Assembly (NCBI GenBank): GCA_016215155.1
Contig: JACRLQ010000043.1
Coordinates: forward strand, 1-39,856
Direction of reading: 5' to 3'
Source: Nitrospirota bacterium
GTDB lineage: Bacteria > Nitrospirota > Thermodesulfovibrionia > Thermodesulfovibrionales > UBA6898
Length of the DNA: 39,856 nucleotides
This document shows positions 25,860-39,856 of this stretch, one piece after another. Both the position numbers and the translations under genes were made by a program. Below the pieces are notes generated by a model. It made no database searches. It was not told the origin of the DNA and saw nothing but the letters and a program-made list of their open reading frames with translations. Every line of letters begins with the position of its first letter. Within the stretch, counting starts at the first letter, position 1.

Positions 25860-27176
25860 TTACCGGAGCAGTTTCTTGAAATGCCTTATCTGTCGTCTGA
25901 CCTCGGAGGGTGAAGTTCCCCCGAAAGATGACCGCGTCTTTACGGAATTTGAGGGGTCGATCACCGAATATATGTCGTCCGATATCAGGTCCGAAAAAGA
26001 TTTCAGGTCGGTCAATGCAAGCGATTCAATGGGGATCTTCCTGCCGATGCAAAACAGCACGATCTTTCCGGTTATCTCGTGCGCTTCCCTGAAAGGGACC
26101 CCTTTTCTGACGAGGTATTCGGCCAGGTCGGTCGCGGTCGAATATCCTTCACCGGCGGTGTCCCTCATTCTCGCTTTATCGAAACAGATGCCCGGGAGCA
26201 TTTCTGAGAGGACCGAGAGACAGGCCTTGACCGTGTCCACTGTGTCAAATACCGGAAGTTTGTCCTCCTGCATGTCGCGGTTGTATGCAAGCGGCAGCCC
26301 CTTAAGGAGGGTGAGCAGCGCCATCAGATTTCCGTATACTCTCCCGGTTTTCCCCCTGGTGAGTTCAGCGACGTCAGGGTTTTTTTTCTGCGGCATAATG
26401 CTGGAGCCGGTTGTAAACCTGTCGGATATCTCGGCAAAGCGGAACTCCTCGGTGGACCAAAGGACAAGCTCCTCCGACAGTCGTGACAAATGCATCATAA
26501 GGATGGCTGATACAGACAGGAATTCGGCGGCAAAGTCCCTGTCGGAGACCGAGTCGATGCTGTTGCCTGATATGCGGCTGAACCCGAGCAGTTTTGCCGT
26601 GTAAGTCCTGTCAGTAGGCAGCGATGTCCCGGAAAGGGCGCATGAGCCAAGGGGCATGACATCGATACGGATCAAGCAATCGGCAAAACGCTCCCTGTCC
26701 CTCTGGAGCATTTCGGCATAAGCCAGCAAATGGTGAGAAAGGAGGACGGGCTGGGCCCTTTGCAGATGGGTATAGCCAGGCATAAGGGTGTCGATGTGTT
26801 CCCCGGCCAGACCTACAAACGCTTTCTGAAGGTCCTTTATTAGAGAGATGATTTCGGTGGTTTCTTCCCTCAGGTAAAGCCTTAAGTCCAGGGCCACCTG
26901 GAGGGCCGCCTCGATATTCATATGGACGTCTTCGAGGTCTTCCCTGAACTTAAACCTTCCGGAGTCTATATCCGCGGCGATCCTGTCAAGGCCTTTAACG
27001 ATCGCCGCGGAATCTTTTTTCGGTATTATGCCCTGCCGGCCCAGCATCCTGGCATGGGCGATACTGCCCCTGATGTCATGCCGCCAGAGTCTCTTATCAT
27101 ATGACACCGATTCGGTAAACGCCTCTACTGAAGCGGACGTCCTGTCGCTGAACCTGCCCGCCCACGGTTTTTTCAC
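25860..27176 (-). CDS. argH: Argininosuccinate lyase
   Basis: ArgH cleaves argininosuccinate to arginine and fumarate, the last step of arginine synthesis. The 438-residue product belongs to the fumarase/aspartase superfamily with signature GSSIMPQKKNPDVAEL, HTHLQRAQP-like YTHLQRAQPVLLSHH, and EDVHMNIEAAL. Length is slightly below the usual 455-465. The start is GTG at 27176, preceded by GGAGGT (27185-27190). It begins the upstream minus-strand set of four genes, which ends with the response regulator gene. Confidence 0.95.
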   Translation of the reverse strand: MKKPWAGRFSDRTSASVEAFTESVSYDKRLWRHDIRGSIAHARMLGRQGIIPKKDSAAIVKGLDRIAADIDSGRFKFREDLEDVHMNIEAALQVALDLRLYLREETTEIISLIKDLQKAFVGLAGEHIDTLMPGYTHLQRAQPVLLSHHLLAYAEMLQRDRERFADCLIRIDVMPLGSCALSGTSLPTDRTYTAKLLGFSRISGNSIDSVSDRDFAAEFLSVSAILMMHLSRLSEELVLWSTEEFRFAEISDRFTTGSSIMPQKKNPDVAELTRGKTGRVYGNLMALLTLLKGLPLAYNRDMQEDKLPVFDTVDTVKACLSVLSEMLPGICFDKARMRDTAGEGYSTATDLAEYLVRKGVPFREAHEITGKIVLFCIGRKIPIESLALTDLKSFSDLISDDIYSVIDPSNSVKTRSSFGGTSPSEVRRQIRHFKKLLR

Positions 27177-27199
27177 GAATTAATACCTCCGGCAAAGTG

Positions 27200-27205
27200 T
27201 ATAAT
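27200..27205 (+). promoter_or_regulatory. Perfect -10 box for moxR, possibly leaderless
   Basis: TATAAT lies 6 bases before ATG 27212. Transcription from it would begin at or next to the start codon. No Shine-Dalgarno precedes that ATG, and no good -35 is visible at the expected distance, so this may be an activator-dependent or leaderless arrangement. Confidence 0.4.
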
Positions 27206-27211
27206 ATAACA

Positions 27212-28147
27212 ATGAATGATAATATGATAAATCAGTCGGTAAAGCAATTGCAAAGCCGTATGGAGACTGTTCTGAGGGGTAAGCCGGAGGCGGTAAAGAT
27301 GTCCATCGTCAGCCTTCTTGCAAGGGGGAACCTGCTAATCGAGGACATCCCCGGAGTGGGCAAAACTACTCTGGCCTATGCCCTTGCCAGGTCACTTGAC
27401 TGCTCTTTCAGAAGAATTCAGTTCACAAGCGACCTCCTGCCGACCGACATTATCGGAGTCAATATATTCAATCAGGAGACCCATGGCTTCGAATTCAGAC
27501 CTGGTCCCATATTCTCGAATATCGTGCTTGCCGACGAGATCAACAGGACAAACCCCAAGACCCAGTCGGCCCTGCTCGAAGCCATGAATGAAAAGAAGAT
27601 CACAGTTGAAAACGATACCTATGTCCTCCCTGAACCTTTTATGGTCATAGCGACCCAGAACCCGATGGAATCACACGGGACTTTTCCGCTGCCCGAGAGT
27701 CAGCTGGACCGATTCCTGCTCCATATACATATCGGTTACCCGGACCCTGAGTTCGAACGCACAGCGGTCGTGGAACGCGCCAGCTTCGAACTGCTCCATA
27801 CACTTACGCCGGTACTGTCGAAGGCTGAAGTAATAGCTATGCAGACTGATGTGGAAAAGGTCCATACGGATGCCGGTGTCGTAGATTATCTGATGAGGAT
27901 AGTTGAAGAAACGAGGCGGCATAAGGATGTCCGTCTCGGCTGCAGCACGCGAGGGGCCCAGTTTTTCGTCAGGGCCGTCAAGGCGAATGCCTATTATGAA
28001 GGAAGGGATTTTATCGTGCCCGACGATGTAAAGACCCTGGCCCCTCTGGCCATAGGCCACCGGCTCATATTAAGGACGAGAAAAACCCTGTCTGACGCTG
28101 AAACAATCGTCCGTGACATTACGGAGAGACTTCCCGTCCCACTTTGA
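27212..28147 (+). CDS. MoxR-family AAA+ ATPase
   Basis: The 311-residue cytoplasmic ATPase has Walker A IEDIPGVGKTTLAYALA, Walker B IVLADEINRTNPKTQSALLEA, sensor region ATQNPMESHGTFPLPESQLDRF and the lid domain ending RLPVPL. MoxR proteins act as chaperone-like ATPases for neighbouring membrane or von Willebrand-like proteins. With the DUF58 and transglutaminase genes it forms a conserved three-gene unit in many phyla. I take ATG 27212; a GTG at 27197 in the same frame overlaps the -10 box. Its client is unknown. Confidence 0.92.
   Translation: MNDNMINQSVKQLQSRMETVLRGKPEAVKMSIVSLLARGNLLIEDIPGVGKTTLAYALARSLDCSFRRIQFTSDLLPTDIIGVNIFNQETHGFEFRPGPIFSNIVLADEINRTNPKTQSALLEAMNEKKITVENDTYVLPEPFMVIATQNPMESHGTFPLPESQLDRFLLHIHIGYPDPEFERTAVVERASFELLHTLTPVLSKAEVIAMQTDVEKVHTDAGVVDYLMRIVEETRRHKDVRLGCSTRGAQFFVRAVKANAYYEGRDFIVPDDVKTLAPLAIGHRLILRTRKTLSDAETIVRDITERLPVPL
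27219..27247 (-). promoter_or_regulatory. Putative argH promoter inside the moxR start
   Basis: On the minus strand TTGCTT (27247-27242), 17 bases, then TATTAT (27224-27219). The predicted start is near 27212, about 36 bases before the argH GTG, with GGAGGT in the leader. It lies within the first codons of moxR and faces the moxR -10 box. Confidence 0.4.
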
Positions 28148-28163
28148 TAACCCATAATACGCC

Positions 28164-29177
28164 ATGAAGACGACAAAAGAGGGGAAACGTTTCATCGTTG
28201 CGGCATTTCTTATTCTGGTGGCCGCCTTTAACACGGGGAACAATCTGATTTATCTTGTCCTTTCGCTCATGTTCGCCTTTTTGTTTTTGTCCCTGCTCAT
28301 TCTGAAGACAAATCTGTCCGGAGCAGAGGTGGTGATAACCGCCGAGGGCCCTGTCTATGCCGGAGACGAGACCACCCTTGATATCAGCCTGATCAACAGG
28401 AAAAAGACCTTCCCCTGCTATTCCATTAATGTGTCCGATAGGGAGATCGGAATGAAGTCCTATTTTCTATTCGTCCCGGCTTCGGGCGCGTTGTCCCGGA
28501 AGGCCGCGGCCGTATTCAAAAAAAGAGGGTTTTACCGCGGCGATAATGTCCGGATCGTCAGCGGCTACCCTTTTATCCTTTTTTCGAAGACGATAGCCGG
28601 CAGGTCGTCGGCGAATATCCTTGTCTATCCGGCGTATTATGACCTGAACGCCCTTGACCATGAGGTCCGGGAAAAGGAGGGGGAGGGAAGGGCGGTCATC
28701 AGTGGAAAGGGGGATGAAATGCTCTATATGCGACTTTTCAGGGCCGGTGACGATTTCAGGAATATTCATTGGAAGTCCCTTGCAAAATCGTCCGCCCTTA
28801 TGGTCAAGGAATACTCTTCGAATGAGACGGCAAAGATTACGCTGTTCCTCGACAACAGCCCGGCTGAAGACAGGGACAATTTCGAATTCGAAAAGGTCAT
28901 ATCGATCACCGCTACGTTAGCGAGAGATTACCTGGAAAAGGGTTTTTTTGTTCGTATGATGTCCGGCAGTGAGGTCACCCCTTACGGGTATGGCTATGAA
29001 CATCTCCTTGTCATATTGGACCGTCTGGCCCTGATCAGGGAGGAAGAAGTTGACGCTGAAGCCATTTCCGAAGACGAAAAAGACGGCCTTACCATCTGTG
29101 TGCTGAGGTCGGCTGATAAAGGGGGCACAGGAGTTGTCCCCTCGTGCGATCTGGTCATATATGCCGACTCTGTATAA
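28164..29177 (+). CDS. DUF58-domain membrane protein
   Basis: The 337-residue protein starts with two membrane helices (VAAFLILVAAFNTGNNLIYLVLSLMFAFLFLSLLIL is the hydrophobic stretch, about residues 10-45), followed by a beta-rich part and the DUF58 core YMRLFRAGDDFRNIHWKSLA and LMVKEYSSNETAKITLFLD, a von Willebrand A-like fold. It follows moxR by 16 bases and overlaps the transglutaminase gene. The partner role in the MoxR system is well known as a pattern but not understood in mechanism. Confidence 0.9.
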   Translation: MKTTKEGKRFIVAAFLILVAAFNTGNNLIYLVLSLMFAFLFLSLLILKTNLSGAEVVITAEGPVYAGDETTLDISLINRKKTFPCYSINVSDREIGMKSYFLFVPASGALSRKAAAVFKKRGFYRGDNVRIVSGYPFILFSKTIAGRSSANILVYPAYYDLNALDHEVREKEGEGRAVISGKGDEMLYMRLFRAGDDFRNIHWKSLAKSSALMVKEYSSNETAKITLFLDNSPAEDRDNFEFEKVISITATLARDYLEKGFFVRMMSGSEVTPYGYGYEHLLVILDRLALIREEEVDAEAISEDEKDGLTICVLRSADKGGTGVVPSCDLVIYADSV

Positions 29178-31101
29178 ATTTACCACGGCCCTGCTGGCCC
29201 TTACGGGTTGTATCAGTCTTGCCGTTACCGGGGAGATCAACCCGTTAATGTCGATAAGCGCCCTTGCCCTGCTCCCCGGATACTACCGTTTTATAAAAGG
29301 TGAAAGGCATGCCGGGACTGCTTTGATCGGCACGCTCTCCGTTATGGCCCTGGCTGTATTCGTTTTCGATGCGCTCCTCGTGTCGGGGGACTTCTTCATC
29401 GCCGTGGCGCATCTGACGATTACATTCCAGGCGTTAAAGAGTTTTGATCTCAAAGAACCATGGGACCACCTGCAGGTATATTTTGTTTCCCTGCTTCAGC
29501 TGATAATTGCGTCCGAGCTTACGAGCGCGCTTGCATTCGGTGTTATTTTCGTATTTTTTATGCTTCTGCTGGTGACGGCCATGGTCCTTTCCCACTTCAT
29601 GAAAGAGGGCAGGATGTCCGGACTGTCTTTGAAAAAACCCGTTATGGTCATGTCATTTTTGACGGTTGTGGTCACAGTGGTCTTTTTTGTGGCCCTGCCG
29701 AGGACGCCCTACAGATTTCTGGGAAAGACCCATATCAAGGGGATAAAGACATCGGGATTTTCCGAGCAGATGGATTTTGGGTCCCTTAGCAGCATCAAAC
29801 TCGATCCCTCGGTCATAGCGCGCGTCGAACTGAGTCGTGATTTCAGAGGGCCTTACTACTGGCGGGGACACACACTCGATCACTTCGACGGTAAATCATG
29901 GCGCAATACCCTCAAGGACCGCCGCAGAATATACAGGTCGGCCGCCGACGAATTCATCCTCTCCGATTACGACAGGGCCGGGGCGCTCGGGCAGACTTTC
30001 TATCTTGAGCCGATCGACTCGGATGTCCTTTTCAGCCTTGAACAGGCGCGGGGCGTCAGGGCGGACGCATACGCGATTTATGTCGATACGGCGGAAAGCA
30101 TTTATGTGCCTGGAAAAAGGTCCCGGAGGATCAAATACACGGCTTACAGCATCCCGGGAGCCGAATATCCGGGGTCTGTCGAAAAGGCCTACATCCAGCT
30201 GCCCTCAGATAACAAACCTGTGGCCGACCTCGCAAAATCCGTCACGGCGGGTCTAAGGACGGACGCCGAAAGGGCTTCCGCCGTGGAGCGCTACCTAAGA
30301 AACAGCTATACGTATTCACTTACGTTGTCTCCATCGGCGGGGGGCGTAAATCCCGTTGAGGAATTTCTGCTGAGGACGAAAAAGGGCTACTGCGAACATT
30401 ATGCCGCCGGCATGGTTATCATGTTGAGGAGTCTCGGGGTCCCGGCAAGGGTGGTGACGGGTTTCTACGGCGGCGAAAAAAATGAGTATGGCGATTACAC
30501 GATCATCAGAAGCAGTGACGCCCATTCATGGGTAGAGGCCCTTATAGGAGGTTCATGGAAAAGATTCGATCCGACGCCTCCGGTATCGAACGAGAAGCGT
30601 CAGGCATACGCCCTGGTTTGGGATTCGGTAGAGATGGCCTGGGCCAGATACGTTGTCGGGTTCAGTTACAAAGACCAGAGATTTGCGCTCAATTATCTTG
30701 CTACTAATCTCGATCTCAGGAGGCTGCCCAATATCTTCAAACCGGGTCAGCCCGGCATGAAGAGCGATCCGTACATTATACCGGTGCTTGGTCTTTTTAC
30801 CCTCATCGTATATTTATTTTATCGTTTATGGGCCTGGTATCGGGGGAGAAAGAGGTATGGCCCCCTGACATCCGAATATGTGGCAATAAGGCGAATGCTC
30901 GCAAAAAAAGGGATCAGGATTGCGCCGTCTTCGACATCCGGCGATGTCTTGAGCGTGACCAGGCAATATCATTTCAATAAGGACCTGAGCGAATTTATTG
31001 CATTGTATGAAGGCGCGAGGTTCGGACGGAAGGATCCAGATGCCTTGATAAAGAAGGCAGACGTTCTCTTGCAGGCGATTAAGAAATCCGGATTGCGATA
31101 A
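29161..31101 (+). CDS. Membrane transglutaminase-like protein (DUF3488/TgpA type)
   Basis: The roughly 646-residue protein has about six N-terminal membrane helices, an extracytoplasmic transglutaminase domain, one more helix (IPVLGLFTLIVYLFYRLW) and a cytoplasmic DUF4129-like tail. The catalytic triad is complete: Cys in KGYCEHYAAGM (codon 30391-30393), His in SSDAHSWVEA (30523-30525) and Asp in WKRFDPTPP. I chose ATG 29161 (MPTLYKF); a TTG at 29134 gives nine more residues. Either start overlaps DUF58. TgpA is an essential Pseudomonas protein of unclear substrate. The transglutaminase-fold domain of the next gene lacks the Cys seen here. Confidence 0.9.
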   Translation: MPTLYKFTTALLALTGCISLAVTGEINPLMSISALALLPGYYRFIKGERHAGTALIGTLSVMALAVFVFDALLVSGDFFIAVAHLTITFQALKSFDLKEPWDHLQVYFVSLLQLIIASELTSALAFGVIFVFFMLLLVTAMVLSHFMKEGRMSGLSLKKPVMVMSFLTVVVTVVFFVALPRTPYRFLGKTHIKGIKTSGFSEQMDFGSLSSIKLDPSVIARVELSRDFRGPYYWRGHTLDHFDGKSWRNTLKDRRRIYRSAADEFILSDYDRAGALGQTFYLEPIDSDVLFSLEQARGVRADAYAIYVDTAESIYVPGKRSRRIKYTAYSIPGAEYPGSVEKAYIQLPSDNKPVADLAKSVTAGLRTDAERASAVERYLRNSYTYSLTLSPSAGGVNPVEEFLLRTKKGYCEHYAAGMVIMLRSLGVPARVVTGFYGGEKNEYGDYTIIRSSDAHSWVEALIGGSWKRFDPTPPVSNEKRQAYALVWDSVEMAWARYVVGFSYKDQRFALNYLATNLDLRRLPNIFKPGQPGMKSDPYIIPVLGLFTLIVYLFYRLWAWYRGRKRYGPLTSEYVAIRRMLAKKGIRIAPSSTSGDVLSVTRQYHFNKDLSEFIALYEGARFGRKDPDALIKKADVLLQAIKKSGLR

Positions 31102-31204
31102 TTATTACTCTTGCGATTTATTTGTTATGCCTGTCACTTGTCTGTGCACAGCCGCTTTGAAGGTCAACCTTAATGCATATTCAACCTCAATTTATAAATA
31201 GACT

Positions 31205-31234
31205 TTGACAAAGATATTGAAAATAGGCTATAAA
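31205..31234 (+). promoter_or_regulatory. Strong sigma70-type promoter for the accessory region
   Basis: TTGACA (31205-31210), 18 bases, TATAAA (31229-31234). Transcription would start near 31241, giving a leader of about 120 bases before ATG 31362. It is the best promoter match on the plus strand in this window. Confidence 0.6.
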
Positions 31235-31255
31235 TCACTCACTGTCTTTTGGTGT

Positions 31256-31293
31256 CCGAAACTTTCGGGGATAGCATAAGGCTGAGCGTTATG
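31256..31293 (+). promoter_or_regulatory. Two small hairpins in the leader of the large exported protein
   Basis: CCGAAA-C-TTTCGG (31256-31268) and CATAAGGC-TGA-GCGTTATG (31275-31293, one G-G mismatch) lie in the predicted 5' leader. I do not recognise a known riboswitch; they could be RNA structure or protein-binding palindromes. The rest of 31102-31361 contains the promoter and no gene. Confidence 0.35.
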
Positions 31294-31361
31294 ACTTTTG
31301 AATTCTAGGTTGCTATTGCGATTGACTACTGGGTGTTCAAGGGAAGGATGGGTGGGTTTAA

Positions 31362-34300
31362 ATGAAGGGGAAGACAAAAGAGAGGGAATTCCTGTCAAAG
31401 CAGTTCATCGCGGTTAATGTTTTTATTCTGTTTATCATTACATTTCAAATGCCTGGGCTGCCTGATGCAGTGACGCCGTGTTCCGCGCAGATTTATAACC
31501 AAGTGGCCGACACTAACGGAGCGCTGGGGCCGGAAGGGGTGGCGGCGATAAGGATAATAGAATCGGGCAATAGACTTATTAAAACCCTGGAAAAAGGGGA
31601 GGCCATAGAGAGTCATATAGATAATGTTATTAGGGATATATCTGCGTTTGAGGTTGAAGATGCGGAGAGCCTGAGGCGATTCGGGGACACTGAAGATAAG
31701 CTTAAATCCACGGGATCGTCAAAGGCATGGAAAAGACACCGGGAGGCGCTTGATAAATACAGAGCAAGAGCGACAGAAGTAAAAGGCCATATCGAAGCGG
31801 TAAAAGAGGCAAGAAAAAAGAAGGCGCAGGAGGGGGAGATTAAGCAGAGGATTGTAACCCTTGTCGATTCGCTGGAAAAAGACAAGCTGCCTTATGAGTA
31901 TAAGCTTAAAGATTCCAGCAGGCTTCCATGGAGGGTGGCGGAGCCCGGTGAAATCGCCTTGCTTGGCAACGCCCCTGTCGTTTCGGGTTCTGCGGCCCAA
32001 CCTTTACGTAATCCCCCGGCGTCAGATGACCTTTCTCCCACTCCTGACGTCCAGATCACCCCTGAGGTACAGGCCCTGGCAAAGAGTCTCGGCAACGATC
32101 CGCTTACTATATTCAGGTATGTTTACAATAACTACAGCTACACACCCTATTACGGTTCAGTGAAAGGCTCTGTTGATACCTATTGGGAGAAGGAGGGGAA
32201 CGATTACGATCTTTCGTCTCTCCTCATAGCCCTTCTCAGGGCCTCGAACGTGCCTGCCAGGTACGTGAAGACGAAGGCACGGGTTTCAGCTGAAAAACTG
32301 ATGAAAATAACGGGCATCAACGACCCGATGGCGGCTATGGAGTATCTTGATATGTCTGAGGTCCCTGTCGGGTATTATGCTTCCGGTGGGATTATATCAC
32401 ACGTTGAGGTCGAGCATGTCTATGTCGAGGCATACATACCTTATGGGAATTATCGAGGCACGGGAGAAGACGATACTGGAAAGATCTGGGTACCCCTTGA
32501 CGTTAGCTTCAAGGAAATAGAACCTGTGCAGGAAGGAACAGACATCGCCTCTCAGATGGGTTTTGACTGGAAGGCGTTTTCGAATGAGTACCTGGGCGGA
32601 CTTGTGAACATGACGCCTCTGGATTACTACAGGGGCAAAGTGGGAGGGTATGTATCGCAAACCTATCCGGGCCAGAGTATTGATTCTCTCAAGAGAGTCG
32701 ATAGGATTCGGACAAAACTGTTCGACTTTATACCGGGTACGCTGCCGTATGAGACGGTGGGGACGCCGGAGCTGTTTTCTGCCATACCCAATGAGCAAAG
32801 GCACTATGTAAGGTTTACGATCCCTGAGGTGCTGGATTATGCGGCAAGCCTGCCGGAGGTGTCTGGCCGGAGGTTGACGCTTTCCTTCGAAGGGGCGGAT
32901 GCGGAAGACCAGGCATTGATTGAGGCATATGGGGGGATATTCAAAACACCGCCTTATCTGATAGAGGTGAGGCCCATTTTGAGGATCGACGGGATTAGGG
33001 CGGCGGAGGGGACTGTAATGAGCGCAGGCATAGGGACCGGCTTCAGCATAACCTACACGAGGCCCGGTGGAAAGACGGAGGTCTTTGACCATCACATTAC
33101 AACAGGCAGTTTCAATGCGGTAGGGATAACGACGGGCCGGGTGAGGCCTGAGTTTCTGACTATAGCCCAGGTGGAGCCCTCTGAGGAGCCATACATAGCG
33201 AAGATGCTCCATAGCCTTGTGATGAAATACCATGACCGGCAGAACATAGCGAGGCAGACACTTGGGGACACGATGAAGATCAAAAGCAGGATGCTCATCA
33301 GTGAGGCGTTGGTATCGTCCAGGGAGGATATCAAATGGGCGCTGGGCATGACGCCTATGAGTTTCGAGATGTCGGGGTTCATGATAGACGCCAAGGAGAT
33401 GGTCTCGGGGATCATGCCGGTGGATGGTTATGACCGTAAGAAAATAATAGACTTTGCGATGGTAAGCGGACACGAGGCGTCGTATCAGGAAAACGCGGTG
33501 TTTGAAGACAGCATGTTCTGGGTGAGCGGGTTGTCTGCGGTGAAGGGGTTGCAGATGCTCAAGGCCATGGGGATCAATGTCATAGAACTTGAGCCTCACA
33601 CGACGTATATGAACTATGCCCTTCCTGAGGTTGTCATAGAAGACATCAATAACGCCCTCAACATGGGCTGGAGGGTGATAGCGCCGGAGACGACCGGTGG
33701 GCTCCCGGCAGTGCCATTTATCAAATACGACCCGGAAACAGGTTCGGCGGGGTATATGATTGCGGCCAGGGCAGGAGGGCTTAACTGGAATATATCGCCT
33801 ATTACACACGAGGAAGATTTGACCTTCATAAAAGATGCTCTGGAGCAGAGCGGCCTTCTTAGGATAAACTTTGAGATACTTGATCCGTTGAGTCCGTATA
33901 TCGCAGCGATGGGAGATTATTTCATTGCGTTGCTGCGAGTAGTTGTAGTGGCTGATGCATATGCAGTGCAGGTGGTAAAGGAAAAGCCCGTATATTTTGA
34001 TACGGATTATCGGCATTATAAACAAGGGCAATGGCCTCTTTATGCTGTGTCGCCAGGGCAGTATAAATACAAGTTTGACGGACGGGAATTGCTCAGATTC
34101 CATGTGGCAGAAATAATTGTGACCAATGAAGCGCCTTCATGCGGGCCACTTGTGTATCCATACAGGTGCGGAGAGTCCTTCGTTGCAAGACGCGACAGAA
34201 CCGGAGATACCCTGAAGGCTACAGTAATAGTCGGTACGAATGCAAATGTAACCTGGACTTGTAATGGCACTGCTCCCAACGGAGGCAATAACGGCAACTG

Positions 34301-34958
34301 TAACTCGCTACCAGGTTCCGGAACAGGGCCGGTGTTCAGTTTCATTCCGAACCCGCCTCAGGCCGCCAGCGGAAGAACACTTCCTCTCTCGTATCAGTTG
34401 AAGGCAACAGTGGATATCGGAACGATGTCAAGGGACATTACAAAAGTTATAACGCAGGATGGTCTTGATGAATTGAGGCAAGAATATGAAGACCTTCCGC
34501 AAAGAGATTCGCAAGAGCGTTCCTGCTTCGATAAAGATGTGCCAACGTACGATGCACTTTTGGGTTTAAATGCTGAGCCGGATCGTCATGAGTGGCATAT
34601 ATTGAGATTGCACAATTTAAATCAACATGCTGTAGACACAGACAATAACTTTATTAGCGGCGATCTAAGAGTGACAAGTGGATATAGATGTCCAATAGGT
34701 AATCAGCGAGAAGTCAATAGAGGCGCGGGATCGATGACATCAAACCATCAATATGGGCGAGCATTTGACTTTAATCAGCAATCTAGCGGCGATAACTATG
34801 ATGCATTTGACGCAGCACGTAACGTCGGCGCGGGTGGTGATTCATATTTGCGCGCATCAAATGGAACACGATATTTTTTAAGAAATGGGTTCCCTCCAAG
34901 TCCGGGTCAACTTCCGTCAGGGGTCTCATATGTGCAAGGACATGTTGCATGGCAATAA
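31362..34958 (+). CDS. Large exported protein: pseudo-transglutaminase domain, beta-rich middle, C-terminal M15_3-type peptidase domain
   Basis: The 1198-residue protein has an N-terminal hydrophobic segment (residues 14-35) with a likely cleavage near CSAQ, then a charged helical stretch (60-175). A transglutaminase-fold domain follows (about 235-385). There Asp281 (GNDYDLSS) occupies the usual Cys place, while His352 (EHVYVEAY) and Asp380 (WVPLD) are kept. Residues 410-870 are a long unassigned region. A Cys-containing Ig-like part and a LRQEYEDL junction (about 1025-1065) lead to a C-terminal domain with SGYRCPIGNQ, then His1129 and Asp1136 in SNHQYGRAFDFN and His1194 in YVQGHVAW. These fit peptidase M15_3 metal ligands (D-Ala or L-Ala-D-Glu type peptidoglycan peptidases). 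A leader promoter precedes it and a HEAT-repeat gene follows. Confidence 0.85.
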   Translation: MKGKTKEREFLSKQFIAVNVFILFIITFQMPGLPDAVTPCSAQIYNQVADTNGALGPEGVAAIRIIESGNRLIKTLEKGEAIESHIDNVIRDISAFEVEDAESLRRFGDTEDKLKSTGSSKAWKRHREALDKYRARATEVKGHIEAVKEARKKKAQEGEIKQRIVTLVDSLEKDKLPYEYKLKDSSRLPWRVAEPGEIALLGNAPVVSGSAAQPLRNPPASDDLSPTPDVQITPEVQALAKSLGNDPLTIFRYVYNNYSYTPYYGSVKGSVDTYWEKEGNDYDLSSLLIALLRASNVPARYVKTKARVSAEKLMKITGINDPMAAMEYLDMSEVPVGYYASGGIISHVEVEHVYVEAYIPYGNYRGTGEDDTGKIWVPLDVSFKEIEPVQEGTDIASQMGFDWKAFSNEYLGGLVNMTPLDYYRGKVGGYVSQTYPGQSIDSLKRVDRIRTKLFDFIPGTLPYETVGTPELFSAIPNEQRHYVRFTIPEVLDYAASLPEVSGRRLTLSFEGADAEDQALIEAYGGIFKTPPYLIEVRPILRIDGIRAAEGTVMSAGIGTGFSITYTRPGGKTEVFDHHITTGSFNAVGITTGRVRPEFLTIAQVEPSEEPYIAKMLHSLVMKYHDRQNIARQTLGDTMKIKSRMLISEALVSSREDIKWALGMTPMSFEMSGFMIDAKEMVSGIMPVDGYDRKKIIDFAMVSGHEASYQENAVFEDSMFWVSGLSAVKGLQMLKAMGINVIELEPHTTYMNYALPEVVIEDINNALNMGWRVIAPETTGGLPAVPFIKYDPETGSAGYMIAARAGGLNWNISPITHEEDLTFIKDALEQSGLLRINFEILDPLSPYIAAMGDYFIALLRVVVVADAYAVQVVKEKPVYFDTDYRHYKQGQWPLYAVSPGQYKYKFDGRELLRFHVAEIIVTNEAPSCGPLVYPYRCGESFVARRDRTGDTLKATVIVGTNANVTWTCNGTAPNGGNNGNCNSLPGSGTGPVFSFIPNPPQAASGRTLPLSYQLKATVDIGTMSRDITKVITQDGLDELRQEYEDLPQRDSQERSCFDKDVPTYDALLGLNAEPDRHEWHILRLHNLNQHAVDTDNNFISGDLRVTSGYRCPIGNQREVNRGAGSMTSNHQYGRAFDFNQQSSGDNYDAFDAARNVGAGGDSYLRASNGTRYFLRNGFPPSPGQLPSGVSYVQGHVAWQ
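32586..33165 (+). repeat. Parent segment of a downstream partial duplication
   Basis: This part of the large gene, residues about 410-600, matches 35830-36165 in two blocks: about 32586-32640 and about 32888-33165. The roughly 250 bases between them are missing in the copy, and the deletion keeps the frame. Identity is high by eye, for example EAYGGIFKTPPYLIEVRPIL is unchanged. Confidence 0.85.
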
Positions 34959-34980
34959 AATGAAAATAGAGGGCATTCTA

Positions 34981-35823
34981 ATGAAAATACCCGTTTTTAG
35001 TGTATGTGTGATTATTTTTTGGAATATAATTAGTCCTGTCTCTGGGCTGGCAGAATCCAGAGCTGATTTGATACCCATCAAAGAGAAGTACTATCAAAAA
35101 TTAATTAGTTCTGATTTTTCGCAGCGCTATGAAGCAACAAGGTACTTCAACCAAAAGCTTGAGAAGGAAGATCTTACTGATGATGTTATTAAAGAATCGC
35201 TGAATTTATTAAAAAATGAAGCAGAGCGGATAATAAAGTTTAGAGAACTTTCACTCAAACCCGGTGTCCAAAGAATAGAAGAAAAGGTCCCTCATAATTT
35301 GCTTTATATGAATGATGAAGAATTTGCAGTATATTATGGTGATTTATGCGAGATTATTGGAAAATCAGCAAAGAAGGATTATCTGGCAATACTTATTGAG
35401 CATTGCTTAGAGCCAAAAGTATTTCTTTACTATGGCGCTGACGCAGTCGATCCAATCATTAGCACACTATTAGTGTCTATTTTACCAGATAAAAAGATGT
35501 CTGCAATATTTGTCTTAGGTGAGATGCTTAAGCCGAAGAAAGAGGGTTATATCACGAGTGGGGTTGATAGATCAAAAATTATGGCAGTTTTGATTCAAGC
35601 GACATCTGATAGTGATAGAAATATAAGGCAGGCATCAGTAAGAGCAATTGGTGATTCTGGTGATAAAGATGCCGTTCCAGTGCTAACGGAGATTGCCAAT
35701 AACGATCCGTTTTATTTCGAGAAGACGGATAGGACAACTGGCAAAATAATAACGAGGTACGCTGTCAGAGAGGAAGCAAAGAAGGCATTGGAGAAGATTA
35801 GAGAGAAAGACATTGCGAAATAA
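34981..35823 (+). CDS. Exported HEAT-repeat-like protein (candidate immunity protein 1)
   Basis: The 280-residue protein starts at ATG 34981, preceded by GAGGG about eight bases upstream; the frame continues upstream into the large gene but without a signal sequence. The N-terminus is a signal peptide (MKIPVFSVCVIIFWNIISPVSG). The body is all-helical, with two or three HEAT-like repeats in the C-terminal half: SDRNIRQASVRAIGDSGDKD is the clearest. It is paralogous to the protein at 36202-37062: both have a YYGDL/FYGDF helix, GADAVDPII/GENAVEPLI, and VREEAKKALEKI/VRDEAARTITRL. The DNA is visibly AT-rich (16 G+C in 35161-35220 by hand count). It follows the large gene by 22 bases. Binding partner unknown. 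Confidence 0.8.
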   Translation: MKIPVFSVCVIIFWNIISPVSGLAESRADLIPIKEKYYQKLISSDFSQRYEATRYFNQKLEKEDLTDDVIKESLNLLKNEAERIIKFRELSLKPGVQRIEEKVPHNLLYMNDEEFAVYYGDLCEIIGKSAKKDYLAILIEHCLEPKVFLYYGADAVDPIISTLLVSILPDKKMSAIFVLGEMLKPKKEGYITSGVDRSKIMAVLIQATSDSDRNIRQASVRAIGDSGDKDAVPVLTEIANNDPFYFEKTDRTTGKIITRYAVREEAKKALEKIREKDIAK

Positions 35824-36193
35824 GAACAAAGGTTACCTGGGCAGTCTTGTGAACATGACGCCGCTTGAATTCTACAAGGGCAAATTCGAGGGGGCGGATG
35901 CGGACGACAAGGCGTTGATTGAGGCATACGGCGGGATATTCAAGACTCCTCCATATCTTATAGAGGTGAGGCCTATTTTGAGGATCGACGGGATGAGGGC
36001 GGCAGAAGGCAGCGTTATGAGCGCCGGCACAGGGACCTGCTTCAGCATAACCTATACGAGACCCGGCGGAAAGACAGAGGTCTTCGACCATCACATTACC
36101 ACCGGCAGTTTCAATGCGGTTGGGATAACGACGGGCCGTGTGAGGCCTGAGTTTCTTGCCCTCCTGGATGGTAAGAATTTAATAGATCTATAG
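35824..36193 (+). pseudogene. Internally deleted fragment of the large exported protein gene
   Basis: The frame reads GYLGSLVNMTPLEFYKGK joined directly to FEGADADDKALIEAYGG and ends RPEFLALLDGKNLIDL-stop. It matches residues about 410-427 and 509-599 of the 1198-residue protein, with the 81 residues between deleted in frame. There is no signal peptide, no Shine-Dalgarno and no complete domain. A TTG at 35813 is the only start-like codon and lies inside the preceding gene. I treat it as a remnant of a second copy or a displaced module whose 3' neighbour is the second HEAT-repeat gene. Confidence 0.8.
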
Positions 36194-36201
36194 GAGGAAT
36201 T

Positions 36202-37062
36202 GTGAACAAATTCATTATTTGTGCCTGTTTCTGCTTGTTAATTTTGACAGTAGCTTCCTCAGCTATGAGTGACGTAATGGCCTCCGACGCGCAAAACCTA
36301 ATAAAACTATTTGAAGGCCCTCGTACTGCAAAATATGAGGAAAGAAGGAATATGATTAAAAAGGTTAAAGAGGGGAAACTTCAGGTTTCAGGTGAGATAA
36401 AGAAGTTGCTTATTGATAGATTTGAAAAGGCGAGCAACTTGCAGGAGGCATACGTCGAGAAGTTAGGAAAACAAGGAATTTCTGAGGGTAAAGCAACAGA
36501 TCGCTTCTATGAAGAATACGGCGGGCAAGAGTATGCGCAATTCTATGGCGACTTTGCAGCATTAGTTGCAGCGTTCAAAGACACGCGCGCAATTCAGTCA
36601 CTGCTGAAAGGTCTGTATTATTATGGCGGCAACGTTTTGCCAACAGAAGTTATTTCAACAGGAGAAAATGCAGTAGAGCCATTAATATCTGAAACTAAGT
36701 CGCGGAACAAACTTTTGAGAAGAATGGCCTTCTTCGTTCTGTCTGTATGGGCTAATGCTCCGGTAGCGTATCAGGACTACAGTATAGGTGAAGAATTAGC
36801 TATAAAGAATATCACGCAACTAAATGATTTAAAAGAAATCTTTCTGAAGGCTTTGAGCGATGAGGAGAAAGATATCCGCTTAAGTGCGGCTTATGGGTTA
36901 GGCGTATTTCCAGAAGCGGCAGTTATACAAAAATTAGAAGAAGTTGTCAGCAGTGATTCTTATCAGACTAAATACAGTAAGCAATATATAGTTAGAGATG
37001 AAGCAGCTCGAACTATAACGCGCCTAAAAAAGAAAATGGCATCAGATGATGCCTCGAAGTAA
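36202..37062 (+). CDS. Exported HEAT-repeat-like protein (candidate immunity protein 2)
   Basis: The 286-residue protein starts at GTG 36202 with AGGAGG at 36192-36197. It has a clear signal peptide (NKFIICACFCLLILTVASSAMS) and a helical body with HEAT-like units (LLRRMAFFVLSVWANAP, EKDIRLSAAYGLGVFPEAAV). It aligns by eye with the protein at 34981-35823 across its length, although identity is low, so the two are divergent paralogues. It follows the remnant of the large gene by 8 bases. No enzyme motif is seen. Being exported, it would act in the periplasm or on the surface. Confidence 0.8.
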   Translation: MNKFIICACFCLLILTVASSAMSDVMASDAQNLIKLFEGPRTAKYEERRNMIKKVKEGKLQVSGEIKKLLIDRFEKASNLQEAYVEKLGKQGISEGKATDRFYEEYGGQEYAQFYGDFAALVAAFKDTRAIQSLLKGLYYYGGNVLPTEVISTGENAVEPLISETKSRNKLLRRMAFFVLSVWANAPVAYQDYSIGEELAIKNITQLNDLKEIFLKALSDEEKDIRLSAAYGLGVFPEAAVIQKLEEVVSSDSYQTKYSKQYIVRDEAARTITRLKKKMASDDASK

Positions 37063-37118
37063 AATGCACAGGGATCATTAATTCATTAATTGTCGGCATA
37101 ACTGGCATAACGGCTTAT

Positions 37119-37146
37119 GATCGTTAATTTTGATGGATTAATGATC
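37119..37146. repeat. Inverted repeat after the second HEAT-repeat gene
   Basis: GATCGTTAAT (37119-37128) pairs with ATTAATGATC (37137-37146), with one mismatch. GGATCATTAAT at 37072-37082 is an additional perfect partner of 37137-37147. The three related arms lie in the 170-base gap before the next gene. No T-run follows, so terminator function is doubtful. Confidence 0.4.
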
Positions 37147-37232
37147 CTCTTGTTAAAAAACATATGTGATCTAACAATCAATGATTCGAGGATTAACTGT
37201 TTCTAAAGATGAAGCAAAGATCAGGGGGGACT

Positions 37233-39856
37233 ATGAATAAAGTGATCAGGTCACTATTCCTAATTATCATATCAGCGATCTTCTGTGCGGCGTCTCACGC
37301 TCATGCGAGCAGTCCTGAAGTCACGCGCGGTCTCTCATGGCTTAAGAACAGCCAGAAACCAGCAGGAAATTGGGGTGCTCAGAACAGCTTCCGGGATACT
37401 GCCGCCGCGGTTGACGCTCTTAAGACTCTTGGTGACGTGAGTCAGTCCTATTCACTTGCCATCGGGTGGATGAATGGTTCTTCCGTTGAAAGCAACGATT
37501 ATCTGGTCAGACGGGCCATGTCTCTGGCTAGGGCAGGAATTGACGTCAGAGTTCAATTGGAACAGTTCATTCTTTATCAGAACAATGACGGAGGCTGGGG
37601 GTATTCAGCTGGCTTTGAGAGCAATCCCTACGACACCGCCATGGTCTTGTACGCCTTCAAGACATCTCAATTCCATAGCCCGAATTCCGCAGCCAAGGCC
37701 GTCTCCTACCTTCTTTCAAAACAAAATACCGACGGCAGCTGGAGTGTGCTGAAGGACACACCCGGAGACCTGGCGGCAACTGCCCTCACCGCAATAGCGC
37801 TCAATAATTACGGCGACTCCACCCTCGCGTCGGGGCCTCTTGAAAGCGGGGCTTCATGGATAAAGTCCAAACAAAATTCCGACGGCGGGTTTGGGAATTC
37901 CCCCTCTACAGTCCACGGCACAGTAACTGCGGTCAAGACCCTGCTGGAGTGCGGCAGGCTTCAGTCTTCTCAGTTGCAGCCTGCCCTTGCGTATATCGCC
38001 TCGGGCCAGGCAGGTGACGGCAGTTGGGGCGGGCAGCCGTTTGATACGGCCATGGCCCTGCAGGTCCTTGGCGGGTTAAAGCCGAACCTGTCGATCTCAG
38101 GCGCAGACTTTACCCTGTCCGCTTCAGCGGTAAAAAGCGGAGAATCTGTCCGGCTATCTGCGACTGTGCGAAACACCGGTTCCGAGGACGCCAACAATAT
38201 TCCGGTTAAAATATTTCTGGAAGCTCCTGACCACACGAATTCAGAGCTCATTGCAGCAGAGACGATTTCCGGTCTGCCGGTCGGCGGCTCATATCCAATA
38301 TTAATGGATATTGATACAAAGGGCAGGGATGGCCTCTATCTCGTGACGATTAAAGTTGATCCTGACAACACGCTTGACGAATCCTCGAAACAGGATAATG
38401 AAAGCTCCCTCGATCTGGCCATTGAAGCCACAGCAGATCTGGCGCTTGTGAAGGAAGACATTCAATTTTCGCAGAATCCGGCGTATGCCGGAGATGATAT
38501 CACAATTTCAATTTCGGTCTCAAACAGCGGCAACTATCCGGCGTTGAACGTTAACGTTGCATATTATCTTGACGAAATATCACCCAAAACACTTATTGGG
38601 ACCAGCAAACTGCCTCCTGTCGAAGCAGGGAAAACCGCCCAGAGCAGCACAGTTTGGAAGGCGAATAAAACAGGCTCGGACATTGCCGTCTACGTTGTCG
38701 TTGACCCTGTTAACTCGATCAGGGAGTTGACTAAAGACAATAACATCGCAGCCTCTTCCCTTGTAGTGATGCCTGTAACGGAACCGAACCTTACGGTATC
38801 CTACAAAGACCTTTCGATAGATCCGCCCCTAGTAAATCAAGGCGGCAGAGTGGAGATATCTGCCCTCATAAGAAATGAGGGGCTGACTGCGTCCGGTTCC
38901 TTCGTTGTGGGATTTTATATGGGTGACCCATCGGCAGGGGGCGTACTTCTTGGGAGCAAGACCGTGGCCGGCATTGCCGCCCTTTCAGGTTCTCAAGTAA
39001 GTTTGATGTGGGAAAACATTTCCGCAAGCGGACAGATGCTGATTTTTGTGAAGGCCGATGTTCTAAACGCTATTCTGGAATCCGCTGAAGATGATAATAC
39101 CGCATTTGTATCAATGAGGGTCCTCAGTCCTCCTGACCTTACGATTACAACCAATTCTCTGACTTTTATGCCGTCCGTGGCCCAGGAGGGTGACAAGGTA
39201 ACTCTCTATGCGGCACTTGCTAACATTGGGGACCAGGATGCCCCTGAATTTACGGTGAACGCATACGAAGGGAACGCCCTCATCGGTACGAGTAATATCT
39301 CAAGTGTTCTTGGTAAATCCCAGACAGTGGCGACTTTTGTTTATGACACCACCGGAAAGTTGGGTAACCATGATATCAGTATCATTGTCGACCCGGACAA
39401 CAGGGTTAGTGAGATCAGCGAAACCAACAATCAGGCAGGGAAAGGTTTTGTAGTATTCAAAGCCGATGAACTGCTGTCGGAGAGGTATATATCCCCAAAT
39501 GGCGATGGGATCAAGGATTCGACCCTGTTTTTCTTCAAATTCTCCTCTCCGCAATCGCCGAGGGTCCAGGTCCGTGACTGGAACGGACTGATAATGAGGA
39601 CATTTGACAGTCAGGCCTTCCAAAATACCGCATCAGGGACTGTTTTATGGGATGGGTTGAATGACTCTGGGCTGGTTGTGGATGACGGTGAATATAAAAT
39701 ACAGGCCGTTGACCCGGAAGGCGCTATTTTGCAGGAAGCGTTGATTGTAGTTGACAACAACAGATCTTCTTTCGAAGATGCTCTGAAAACCGGCAACTTC
39801 CAGAAAATTAATCTTATGGCCCTAGTCCCTTCACCTGTAGAATTTGATGAGACACA
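37233..39856 (+). CDS. Large exported protein: terpenoid-cyclase-like toroid, four CARDB domains, FlgD-like Ig domain; 3' truncated
   Basis: The frame starts at ATG 37233 after GGGGGG and stays open to the window end, so the gene continues. There are 874 complete codons here. A signal peptide (VIRSLFLIIISAIFCAASHAHAS) is followed by an alpha/alpha-toroid of prenyltransferase/squalene-cyclase type, with repeats QNNDGGWGYS, QNTDGSWSV, QNSDGGFGNS and AGDGSWGGQ (residues about 30-285). Next come four CARDB-like units (about 290-740), each containing V(R/S)N-like strands and ending in a PDN(T/R)..E..E.DN motif. The last visible part, RYISPNGDGIKDST and VLWDGLNDSG, resembles FlgD/CHU_C-type Ig domains used by surface proteins. 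No catalytic residues of a cyclase are recognisable, so a binding or adhesive role is likely. Confidence 0.85.
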   Translation, partial: MNKVIRSLFLIIISAIFCAASHAHASSPEVTRGLSWLKNSQKPAGNWGAQNSFRDTAAAVDALKTLGDVSQSYSLAIGWMNGSSVESNDYLVRRAMSLARAGIDVRVQLEQFILYQNNDGGWGYSAGFESNPYDTAMVLYAFKTSQFHSPNSAAKAVSYLLSKQNTDGSWSVLKDTPGDLAATALTAIALNNYGDSTLASGPLESGASWIKSKQNSDGGFGNSPSTVHGTVTAVKTLLECGRLQSSQLQPALAYIASGQAGDGSWGGQPFDTAMALQVLGGLKPNLSISGADFTLSASAVKSGESVRLSATVRNTGSEDANNIPVKIFLEAPDHTNSELIAAETISGLPVGGSYPILMDIDTKGRDGLYLVTIKVDPDNTLDESSKQDNESSLDLAIEATADLALVKEDIQFSQNPAYAGDDITISISVSNSGNYPALNVNVAYYLDEISPKTLIGTSKLPPVEAGKTAQSSTVWKANKTGSDIAVYVVVDPVNSIRELTKDNNIAASSLVVMPVTEPNLTVSYKDLSIDPPLVNQGGRVEISALIRNEGLTASGSFVVGFYMGDPSAGGVLLGSKTVAGIAALSGSQVSLMWENISASGQMLIFVKADVLNAILESAEDDNTAFVSMRVLSPPDLTITTNSLTFMPSVAQEGDKVTLYAALANIGDQDAPEFTVNAYEGNALIGTSNISSVLGKSQTVATFVYDTTGKLGNHDISIIVDPDNRVSEISETNNQAGKGFVVFKADELLSERYISPNGDGIKDSTLFFFKFSSPQSPRVQVRDWNGLIMRTFDSQAFQNTASGTVLWDGLNDSGLVVDDGEYKIQAVDPEGAILQEALIVVDNNRSSFEDALKTGNFQKINLMALVPSPVEFDET

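What the first reader, a model, noticed from the sequence alone, without database searches (positions are those of the whole stretch)
34981..37062. Two divergent exported HEAT-repeat paralogues in tandem
Both have signal peptides, similar length (280 and 286 residues) and matching landmark motifs, but low overall identity. Exported HEAT-repeat proteins of this size are uncommon, since most bacterial HEAT proteins are cytoplasmic. Their high divergence next to a nearly identical core fragment suggests fast, target-driven change, as for immunity proteins.
Basis: partly seen in the sequence, partly recalled or inferred. Interest (0 to 1): 0.55.

Follow-up and report, generated by a model that had tools for sequence, protein, structure and literature searches.

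The report
Exported HEAT proteins guarding against toxin
Two distantly related exported helical-repeat proteins sit right behind a modular, secreted bacterial weapon whose tip looks like a cell-wall-cutting enzyme, and they most likely protect the producer from it; this is a new variant of a known kind of bacterial warfare system.

Summary
HEAT1 (34981-35823, 280 aa) and HEAT2 (36202-37062, 286 aa) are intact genes with signal-peptide-like N-termini, 24% identical over nearly their whole length, and the only two of their kind found in the genome. HEAT1 starts 22 bases after a 1198-residue protein: an inactive transglutaminase trunk shared by many bacteria, and a C-terminal tip that in relatives is replaced by NlpC/P60, CHAP, phospholipase, lipase, nuclease or TNT domains, with a different small gene behind. 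Here the tip is a weak peptidase M15 (peptidoglycan) match. So this is a polymorphic toxin locus, and exported HEAT1 is best explained as periplasmic immunity to the M15-like tip. HEAT2 follows a trunk fragment without toxin: an orphan immunity relic. Where Pfam names the tip, envelope-type tips mostly have exported or membrane neighbours, and nuclease or ADP-ribosyltransferase tips do not. New: the trunk lacks RHS repeats and often lies beside a giant toroid-CARDB protein. Toxicity and binding are untested.

The parts
31362..34958 (+). Large protein, 1198 aa: inactive-transglutaminase trunk, linker, M15-like C-terminal tip
   Evidence: Pfam Transglut_core residues 245-380, E 2.5e-10; trunk relatives in 39 of 295 genomes of the phylum, own genome included
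31362..33779 (+). Conserved trunk (residues 1-806; the profile matches 98-806), catalytic Cys replaced by Asp
33780..34958 (+). Variable C-terminal region (residues 807-1198); GC 47.4% (linker) and 44.4% (M15 part) against 51.5% in the trunk
   Evidence: identity to G041, the closest relative, falls from 37 of 50 (residues 751-800) to 13 of 50 (801-850) and 9-13 per block of about 50 after; GC
34665..34850 (+). Peptidase_M15_3 match (residues 1102-1163) with GYR and SxHxxGxAxD motifs; a later His at HVAW
   Evidence: E 5.4e-5, 23.7 bits against cut-off 23.2 for the last 300 residues, 21.3 bits for the whole protein; motifs shared with L108 and L112
34981..35823 (+). HEAT1: exported-type HEAT-repeat protein, proposed periplasmic immunity to the M15-like tip; starts 22 bases after the large gene; GC 36.8%
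35834..36163 (+). Trunk fragment (ORF 35813-36193): residues about 410-429 joined to 509-601 of the trunk, no toxin tip; proposed relic of a displaced or second toxin cassette
36202..37062 (+). HEAT2: exported-type HEAT-repeat paralogue, proposed orphan immunity; GC 40.4%
37209..39854 (+). Start of a giant secreted-type protein: alpha/alpha toroid (squalene-cyclase-like), CARDB, Ig-like domains; runs past the window end
   Evidence: relatives on the trunk gene's strand in 56 of 93 loci

Best explanation
The locus is a polymorphic toxin locus. The large exported protein carries a conserved, catalytically dead transglutaminase trunk and an exchangeable C-terminal tip, here an M15-like peptidase expected to cut peptidoglycan peptides in the periplasm or wall of rival cells. 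HEAT1 is exported to the producer's periplasm, where its helical-repeat surface binds the M15 domain and blocks it. HEAT2 is an immunity gene of an earlier or second cassette whose toxin was lost; its trunk fragment is the scar of the exchange. It is probably kept because it still protects against related toxins of neighbours. Shown: gene order, paralogy, trunk conservation, tip replacement, loss of the catalytic Cys, linkage, and a compartment match across relatives where Pfam names the tip. Inferred: toxicity, M15 activity, binding, periplasmic location, and which HEAT protein blocks which tip.
For: (1) Same trunk, different tips: the two closest named relatives with a complete tip (L090 66%, L091 60% identity) carry lysozyme-like tips and exported propeller-like neighbours (my readings; weak PD40 match for L090). 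Of 98 tips scanned, Pfam names NlpC/P60 in 9, pretoxin HINT in 5, CHAP in 4, and TNT, AHH, Tox-REase-5, CDI EC869-like and PLA2 in 1 each, among others. (2) A same-strand ORF starts within -31 to +50 bases of the toxin stop in 83 of 98 (mechanical ORFs, no chance control run). Among 89 such neighbours within 150 bases are one CdiI_4 and one Imm11, known immunity families. (3) Compartment match: of these 89, the 60 whose neighbour has a strongly hydrophobic segment show no nuclease, TNT or ADP-ribosyltransferase tip family; all such matches fall among the other 29. (4) HEAT_2 neighbours occur in 3 of 89: the window, L123 (28.1 bits, cut-off 27.7) and L148 (18.6 bits, under it). The latter two lack a hydrophobic segment and follow tips that I read as ADP-ribosyltransferase-like. 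(5) Orphan cassettes (trunk fragment + tip + small gene) occur in L052 and twice in L099. (6) Mean GC falls from trunk to tip to neighbour, 47.9, 43.1, 39.0 over 89; neighbour below trunk in 79 of 89.
Against: No function was measured. M15 detection is weak (21.3 bits for the whole protein, cut-off 23.2) and the fold prediction of the tip failed (pLDDT 41). The only two other M15-like tips that I recognised (L108, L112) have other exported-type neighbours, not HEAT (there as L075 and L067). Some trunk proteins with PKD/Glucodextran_B or very long phosphatase-like tips (my reading) are followed by stable-looking gene sets and may not be toxins. Three envelope-type tip matches (M15, NlpC/CHAP, reprolysin) fall among the 29 without a hydrophobic neighbour. 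I take them to be L112, L101 and L094, whose neighbours lie just under the threshold. Tips rich in membrane-like stretches do not separate: 22 of 60 against 8 of 29. Many tips have no named family, so the compartment match rests on a part of the loci. Searches for HEAT relatives are insensitive: P0001 alone did not find HEAT2 in its own genome at E 1.
Confidence: 0.78

Rival explanations
1. A whole trunk-toxin-HEAT unit was duplicated in tandem, and the HEAT copies then diverged fast under selection by changing toxin targets.
For: Trunk copies 91% identical in protein next to HEAT copies 24% identical; tandem neighbour paralogues found for 5 of 85 trunk ORFs tested at E 1e-5.
Against: Synonymous sites of the HEAT pair look saturated while those of the trunk copies do not (small numbers, p about 0.09); no close relatives were found from which to measure a rate.
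Confidence: 0.2
2. The HEAT proteins are export chaperones or adaptors that hold or deliver the large protein, not inhibitors.
For: Adjacent, exported-type, helical-repeat scaffold typical of protein binding.
Against: Neighbour families differ among loci that share the trunk, so an adaptor for the trunk is not conserved. HEAT2 persists beside a toxin-less fragment.
Confidence: 0.1
3. The large protein is a cell-wall remodelling enzyme of the producer and the HEAT proteins are its regulators.
For: M15 and NlpC/P60 enzymes are common housekeeping wall enzymes (recalled); HEAT solenoids can regulate.
Against: Tips on the same trunk include nuclease, TNT and CDI-type toxin domains, and neighbours include CdiI_4 and Imm11; tips are exchanged and presence is patchy (39 of 295 genomes).
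Confidence: 0.07
4. HEAT2 belongs with the downstream giant toroid protein, or both HEAT proteins act on the same M15 tip as a double immunity.
For: 146 bases separate HEAT2 from the giant gene's frame; two immunity proteins for one toxin are reported for Tde5 (PMC13392607, passages including part of the abstract).
Against: Toroid genes follow several unrelated neighbours in relatives, and no HEAT2-like protein was found in 394 other genomes. Nothing here argues against double immunity.
Confidence: 0.2

Closest known systems
Polymorphic toxins with an N-terminal inactive transglutaminase domain (Zhang et al. 2012, PMC3482391, section 19 read whole)
   Same: N-terminal transglutaminase lacking a catalytic residue, behind a signal-type N-terminus; several kinds of C-terminal toxins
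   Different: There the domain is described as always followed by RHS repeats; the window protein has no RHS match, and tips are under 320 residues in 66 of 99 relatives. Homology to the published domains was not tested
Imm-HEAT immunity proteins (same paper, table and section 38 passages)
   Same: HEAT-repeat protein encoded next to a polymorphic toxin
   Different: Partners named in the passages are Tox-REase-7 and Ntox34; here the protein has a signal-type N-terminus and the partner tip is M15-like
E. coli YibA (1oyz), a HEAT protein; its link to an Rhs locus is recalled, not tested
   Same: HEAT fold, VIA-align Z 12.5, rmsd 2.1 over 107 residues
   Different: 20% identity over the aligned part; alphaRep artificial binders score higher (Z up to 14.4), so the match shows fold only
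Homogeneous polyimmunity loci (same paper, section 39 passage)
   Same: Tandem paralogous immunity genes
   Different: The passage says such loci are never interrupted by toxin genes or cassettes; here a trunk fragment lies between

Membership tests
Polymorphic toxin system | Conserved N-terminal trunk with exchangeable C-terminal domains | tested here: met
Polymorphic toxin system | Small immunity gene directly downstream of the toxin | tested here: met
   By position only: 22 bases here; 83 of 98 relatives within -31 to +50; known immunity families in 2 of 89
Polymorphic toxin system | Orphan cassettes or trunk fragments near the main gene | tested here: met
   window 35834-36163; L052, L099
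Polymorphic toxin system | Toxicity neutralised by the cognate immunity protein | not testable with these tools
   needs expression experiments
Inactive-transglutaminase RHS toxins (Zhang 2012) | Loss of a catalytic triad residue | tested here: met
   No Cys at the expected column in 93 ORFs where my motif was found, of 145 ORFs with a trunk match, duplicates and fragments included (D 55, A 33, S 3, E 2)
Inactive-transglutaminase RHS toxins (Zhang 2012) | RHS repeats after the transglutaminase domain | tested here: not met
   No RHS in the whole-protein Pfam scan of the window protein
Imm-HEAT | HEAT repeats in a protein encoded next to a toxin | tested here: met
   and gene order; HEAT2 is under the Pfam cut-off and rests on its likeness to HEAT1
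Imm-HEAT | Sequence relationship to the published Imm-HEAT proteins | not tested
   their sequences were not at hand
Peptidase M15 (tip) | Match to the family profile | tested here: inconclusive
   23.7 bits against 23.2 for the last 300 residues, 21.3 for the whole protein
Peptidase M15 (tip) | Zinc ligands in SxHxxGxAxD and a later His (recalled motif) | tested here: met
   H100, D107 and H165 of the aligned part invariant in alignment A7 of three M15-like tips
Peptidase M15 (tip) | M15 fold | tested here: inconclusive
   prediction failed, pLDDT 41

The most novel reading that the evidence does not exclude
The trunk defines an undescribed class of polymorphic toxins: a largely RHS-free inactive-transglutaminase carrier, found in Nitrospirota, Desulfobacterota, Bacillota, Planctomycetota and others, that travels with a giant alpha/alpha-toroid-CARDB-Ig surface protein acting as its display or delivery partner. 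It often carries envelope-active tips and therefore uses exported immunity proteins built on HEAT solenoids and beta-propellers.
Probability: 0.45. Interest if true: 0.65.

Novelty: new variant of a known kind. Interest (0 to 1): 0.48.

Why it matters
It adds exported HEAT solenoids as likely periplasmic immunity and offers a natural comparison set: one trunk family in which the neighbour's location tends to follow the expected target of the tip. That makes two questions testable: how helical-repeat immunity proteins are re-targeted to new toxins, and how a toxin carrier without RHS repeats, often linked to a giant toroid protein, is delivered.

Tried and rejected
HEAT relatives outside the window: none in plasmids, viral contigs, 84,980 genomes by pattern scan with P0001 (close relatives only), 294 other genomes of the phylum with P0002 and 394 with the two-row profile. 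These searches can miss proteins as divergent as the pair itself, so the absence is only of close relatives.

Structure: HEAT1 folds as a solenoid with confidence only in residues ~150-280 (mean pLDDT 61). Foldseek gave no match at E 0.001 or below (best 1.1e-3). VIA-align gave alphaRep and YibA rows, fold only. The M15-like tip prediction failed. No PDB sequence match for the tip at E 1. Complexes of HEAT and tip, and variable surfaces, were not modelled.

NCBIfam gave only a weak MepK hit for the large protein, far under its cut-off (16.5 bits against 185). PADLOC gave nothing meaningful. No Rfam match in 27000-39856 at the gathering score. The tandem-paralogue test at E 1e-5 found 5 of 85 trunk ORFs but missed the window pair, which is among the 85, at that cut-off (found at 8e-8 with cut-off 10), so it is a lower bound. 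In one search the proteins taken from L004 and L006 were wrong frames and are not used. In the same call L001 scored 85 against HEAT1 and L002 69 against HEAT2, against 114 for the pair, so generic HEAT likeness is part of the score. The split of neighbours by hydropathy used 2.0, first used and so fixed before the Pfam tallies, but after I had read many tips and neighbours. Papers seen as passages only and not relied on: PMC7400221, PMC10318531, PMC12419801. The first two tries at filing this report were returned, one for a check against the calls and one for its format.

Full report
What is there. HEAT1 (34981-35823) and HEAT2 (36202-37062) are intact same-strand genes with ribosome-binding sites and hydrophobic N-termini. 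They are paralogues: 24% identity, E 4e-8 over nearly the whole length. The similarity exceeds 500 shuffles also in the N-terminal halves. HEAT_2 is over the cut-off in HEAT1 and just under it in HEAT2. AlphaFold gives a helical solenoid, confident only in about residues 150-280. Its best structural neighbours are alphaRep HEAT-like binders, with E. coli YibA further down the list.

The gene in front. HEAT1 starts 22 bases after a 1198-residue protein (31362-34958) with a transglutaminase domain (residues 245-380, E 2.5e-10) and a weak Peptidase_M15_3 match near the end (23.7 bits for the last 300 residues alone). The transglutaminase looks dead: at the column of the catalytic Cys none of 93 ORFs with a recognisable motif has Cys. 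These are among 145 ORFs with a trunk match, fragments and duplicate loci included; the other 52 gave no motif. I set the column by eye against the TgpA-like protein at 29134-31101, which keeps the Cys.

Same trunk, exchangeable tips. The trunk (the profile matches residues 98-806) occurs in 39 of 295 genomes of the phylum and 32 of 176 of the order, own genome included in both. A named scan found it in many other phyla (278 relatives, best 80 kept, 75 loci). Against G041, identity falls from 37 of 50 at residues 751-800 to 13 of 50 at 801-850 and stays at 9-13 per block. From 115 loci I removed duplicates and kept 107 ORFs that reach the trunk's end; 99 have a stop, and 98 of these have a tip of 60 residues or more. 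Pfam on at most the last 300 residues of these 98 names NlpC/P60 (9), pretoxin HINT (5), CHAP (4), M15_3 (2), and single TNT, AHH, Tox-REase-5, CDI EC869-like, PLA2, lipase-type and Tse2-type ADP-ribosyltransferase domains, among others (25 of 33 families shown).

The neighbour behind. In 83 of 98 a same-strand ORF of 60 residues or more begins within -31 to +50 bases of the toxin stop. These are mechanical ORFs and no chance control was run. Of the 89 with one within 150 bases, Pfam at E 0.01 finds beta-propeller PD40 in 5, HEAT_2 in 3, CdiI_4 in 1 and Imm11 in 1. The HEAT_2 cases are the window, L123 (28.1 bits, cut-off 27.7) and L148 (18.6 bits, under it). Mean GC runs 47.9 (last 300 trunk residues), 43.1 (end of tip), 39.0 (neighbour), with the neighbour below the trunk in 79 of 89; in the window it runs 51.5, 44.4 and 36.8. 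This is the build of a polymorphic toxin locus.

Compartment test. I split the 89 by whether the neighbour has a 15-residue stretch of mean hydropathy 2.0 or more: 60 do, 29 do not. The threshold was fixed before the Pfam tallies below, but after I had read many of the tips and neighbours. Tips of the 60 match NlpC/P60 (8), CHAP (3), and PLA2, lipase-type, C92, M15 and CHAT (1 each), plus structural domains, and no nuclease, TNT or ADP-ribosyltransferase family (all 16 families shown). Tips of the 29 hold all the pretoxin HINT, TNT, AHH, REase, CDI, HNH, EndoU and Tse2 matches, and three envelope-type exceptions: M15, NlpC/CHAP and reprolysin (all 19 shown). I take the exceptions to be L112, L101 and L094; their neighbours score 1.9-2.0 and read like exported proteins. 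Against the pattern, tips rich in membrane-like stretches do not separate (22 of 60 and 8 of 29), and many tips in both groups carry no telling name. L123 and L148, the two other HEAT neighbours, lack a hydrophobic segment and follow tips that I read as ADP-ribosyltransferase-like (not scanned singly). So an exported HEAT protein behind an M15-like tip is what an immunity role predicts. The two other M15-like tips that I recognised (L108, L112) have other exported-type neighbours.

The fragment and HEAT2. Between the HEAT genes lies a trunk fragment (35834-36163), residues about 410-429 joined to 509-601, with no tip. It differs from the resident copy at dS 0.62 and dN 0.039 (93 codons), so the two diverged under strong constraint; I infer that the fragment lost its tip later. 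L052 holds a trunk fragment that still has a tip and a membrane-type neighbour, and L099 two with tips. I read the window as a cassette exchange in which the older tip was lost and HEAT2 was kept. Synonymous sites of the HEAT pair look saturated and those of the trunk copies do not (6 of 18 against 24 of 42 identical). This favours two separately acquired cassettes over fast divergence in place, but the numbers are small. Tandem paralogous neighbours were found for 5 of 85 trunk ORFs, L108 with its M15-like tip among them; that test missed the window pair at its cut-off.

The giant partner. Downstream starts a very large protein with an alpha/alpha toroid, CARDB, propeller and many Ig-like domains. 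It crosses a short unknown stretch, so its continuity is not shown. A toroid relative lies in 56 of 93 loci, in each of these on the trunk gene's strand; many loci are cut by contig ends. Its role, perhaps display or delivery, is unknown.

Known or new. Zhang et al. 2012 (PMC3482391; section 19 read whole; other passages) describe inactive N-terminal transglutaminases in polymorphic toxins, always followed by RHS repeats, and Imm-HEAT beside Tox-REase-7 and Ntox34. The window protein has no RHS match. Among relatives, one tip of the 29 matches RHS_repeat and none of the 60 (at most the last 300 residues scanned), and two or more RHS-like motifs occur in 4 of 99 whole tips. I found no description of exported HEAT immunity, of an RHS-free trunk of this type or of the toroid partner in searches; the library holds open-licence papers only, and I read passages of few of them. 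I therefore call it a new variant of a known kind.

What remains unproved: toxicity, M15 activity, HEAT-tip binding, periplasmic location, and any measured rate of change.

Noticed in passing
window 37209-39854 and onward (L065): Giant toroid-CARDB-Ig protein; toroid relatives lie on the same strand as the trunk gene in 56 of 93 loci, suggesting a conserved partner of the toxin trunk.
   Followed up: partly
L153 2773-3801 and next gene; L047: Caspase/CHAT-like tips (my reading) followed by two tandem paralogous exported- or membrane-type genes (40% and 46% identity), parallel to the HEAT pair.
   Followed up: partly
L108 3312-5995: M15-like tip followed by two tandem exported-type paralogues of 448 and 450 aa, 47% identical, not named HEAT.
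   Followed up: partly
L090, L091, L099, L115, L129 neighbours: Exported proteins that I read as beta-propellers behind lysozyme-like or NlpC/P60-like tips (PD40 matches 5 of 89 neighbours, members not resolved): candidate propeller immunity proteins.
   Followed up: no
L048, L051, L062, L078: Trunk proteins with tips over 1200 residues that read like phosphatase/sulfatase enzymes (L051 runs off its stretch); in L048, L062 and L078 a similar-looking gene follows, so this may be a non-toxin use of the trunk.
   Followed up: no
G000 contigs C31 and C32: Two further trunk genes in the same genome: one in two frames, with a lipase-like tip and another kind of exported-type neighbour, one cut by the contig end; no HEAT neighbour in view.
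   Followed up: partly
window 27197-31101: MoxR-type AAA ATPase, DUF58 protein and a TgpA-like transglutaminase that keeps its Cys lie just upstream of the toxin locus.
   Followed up: no
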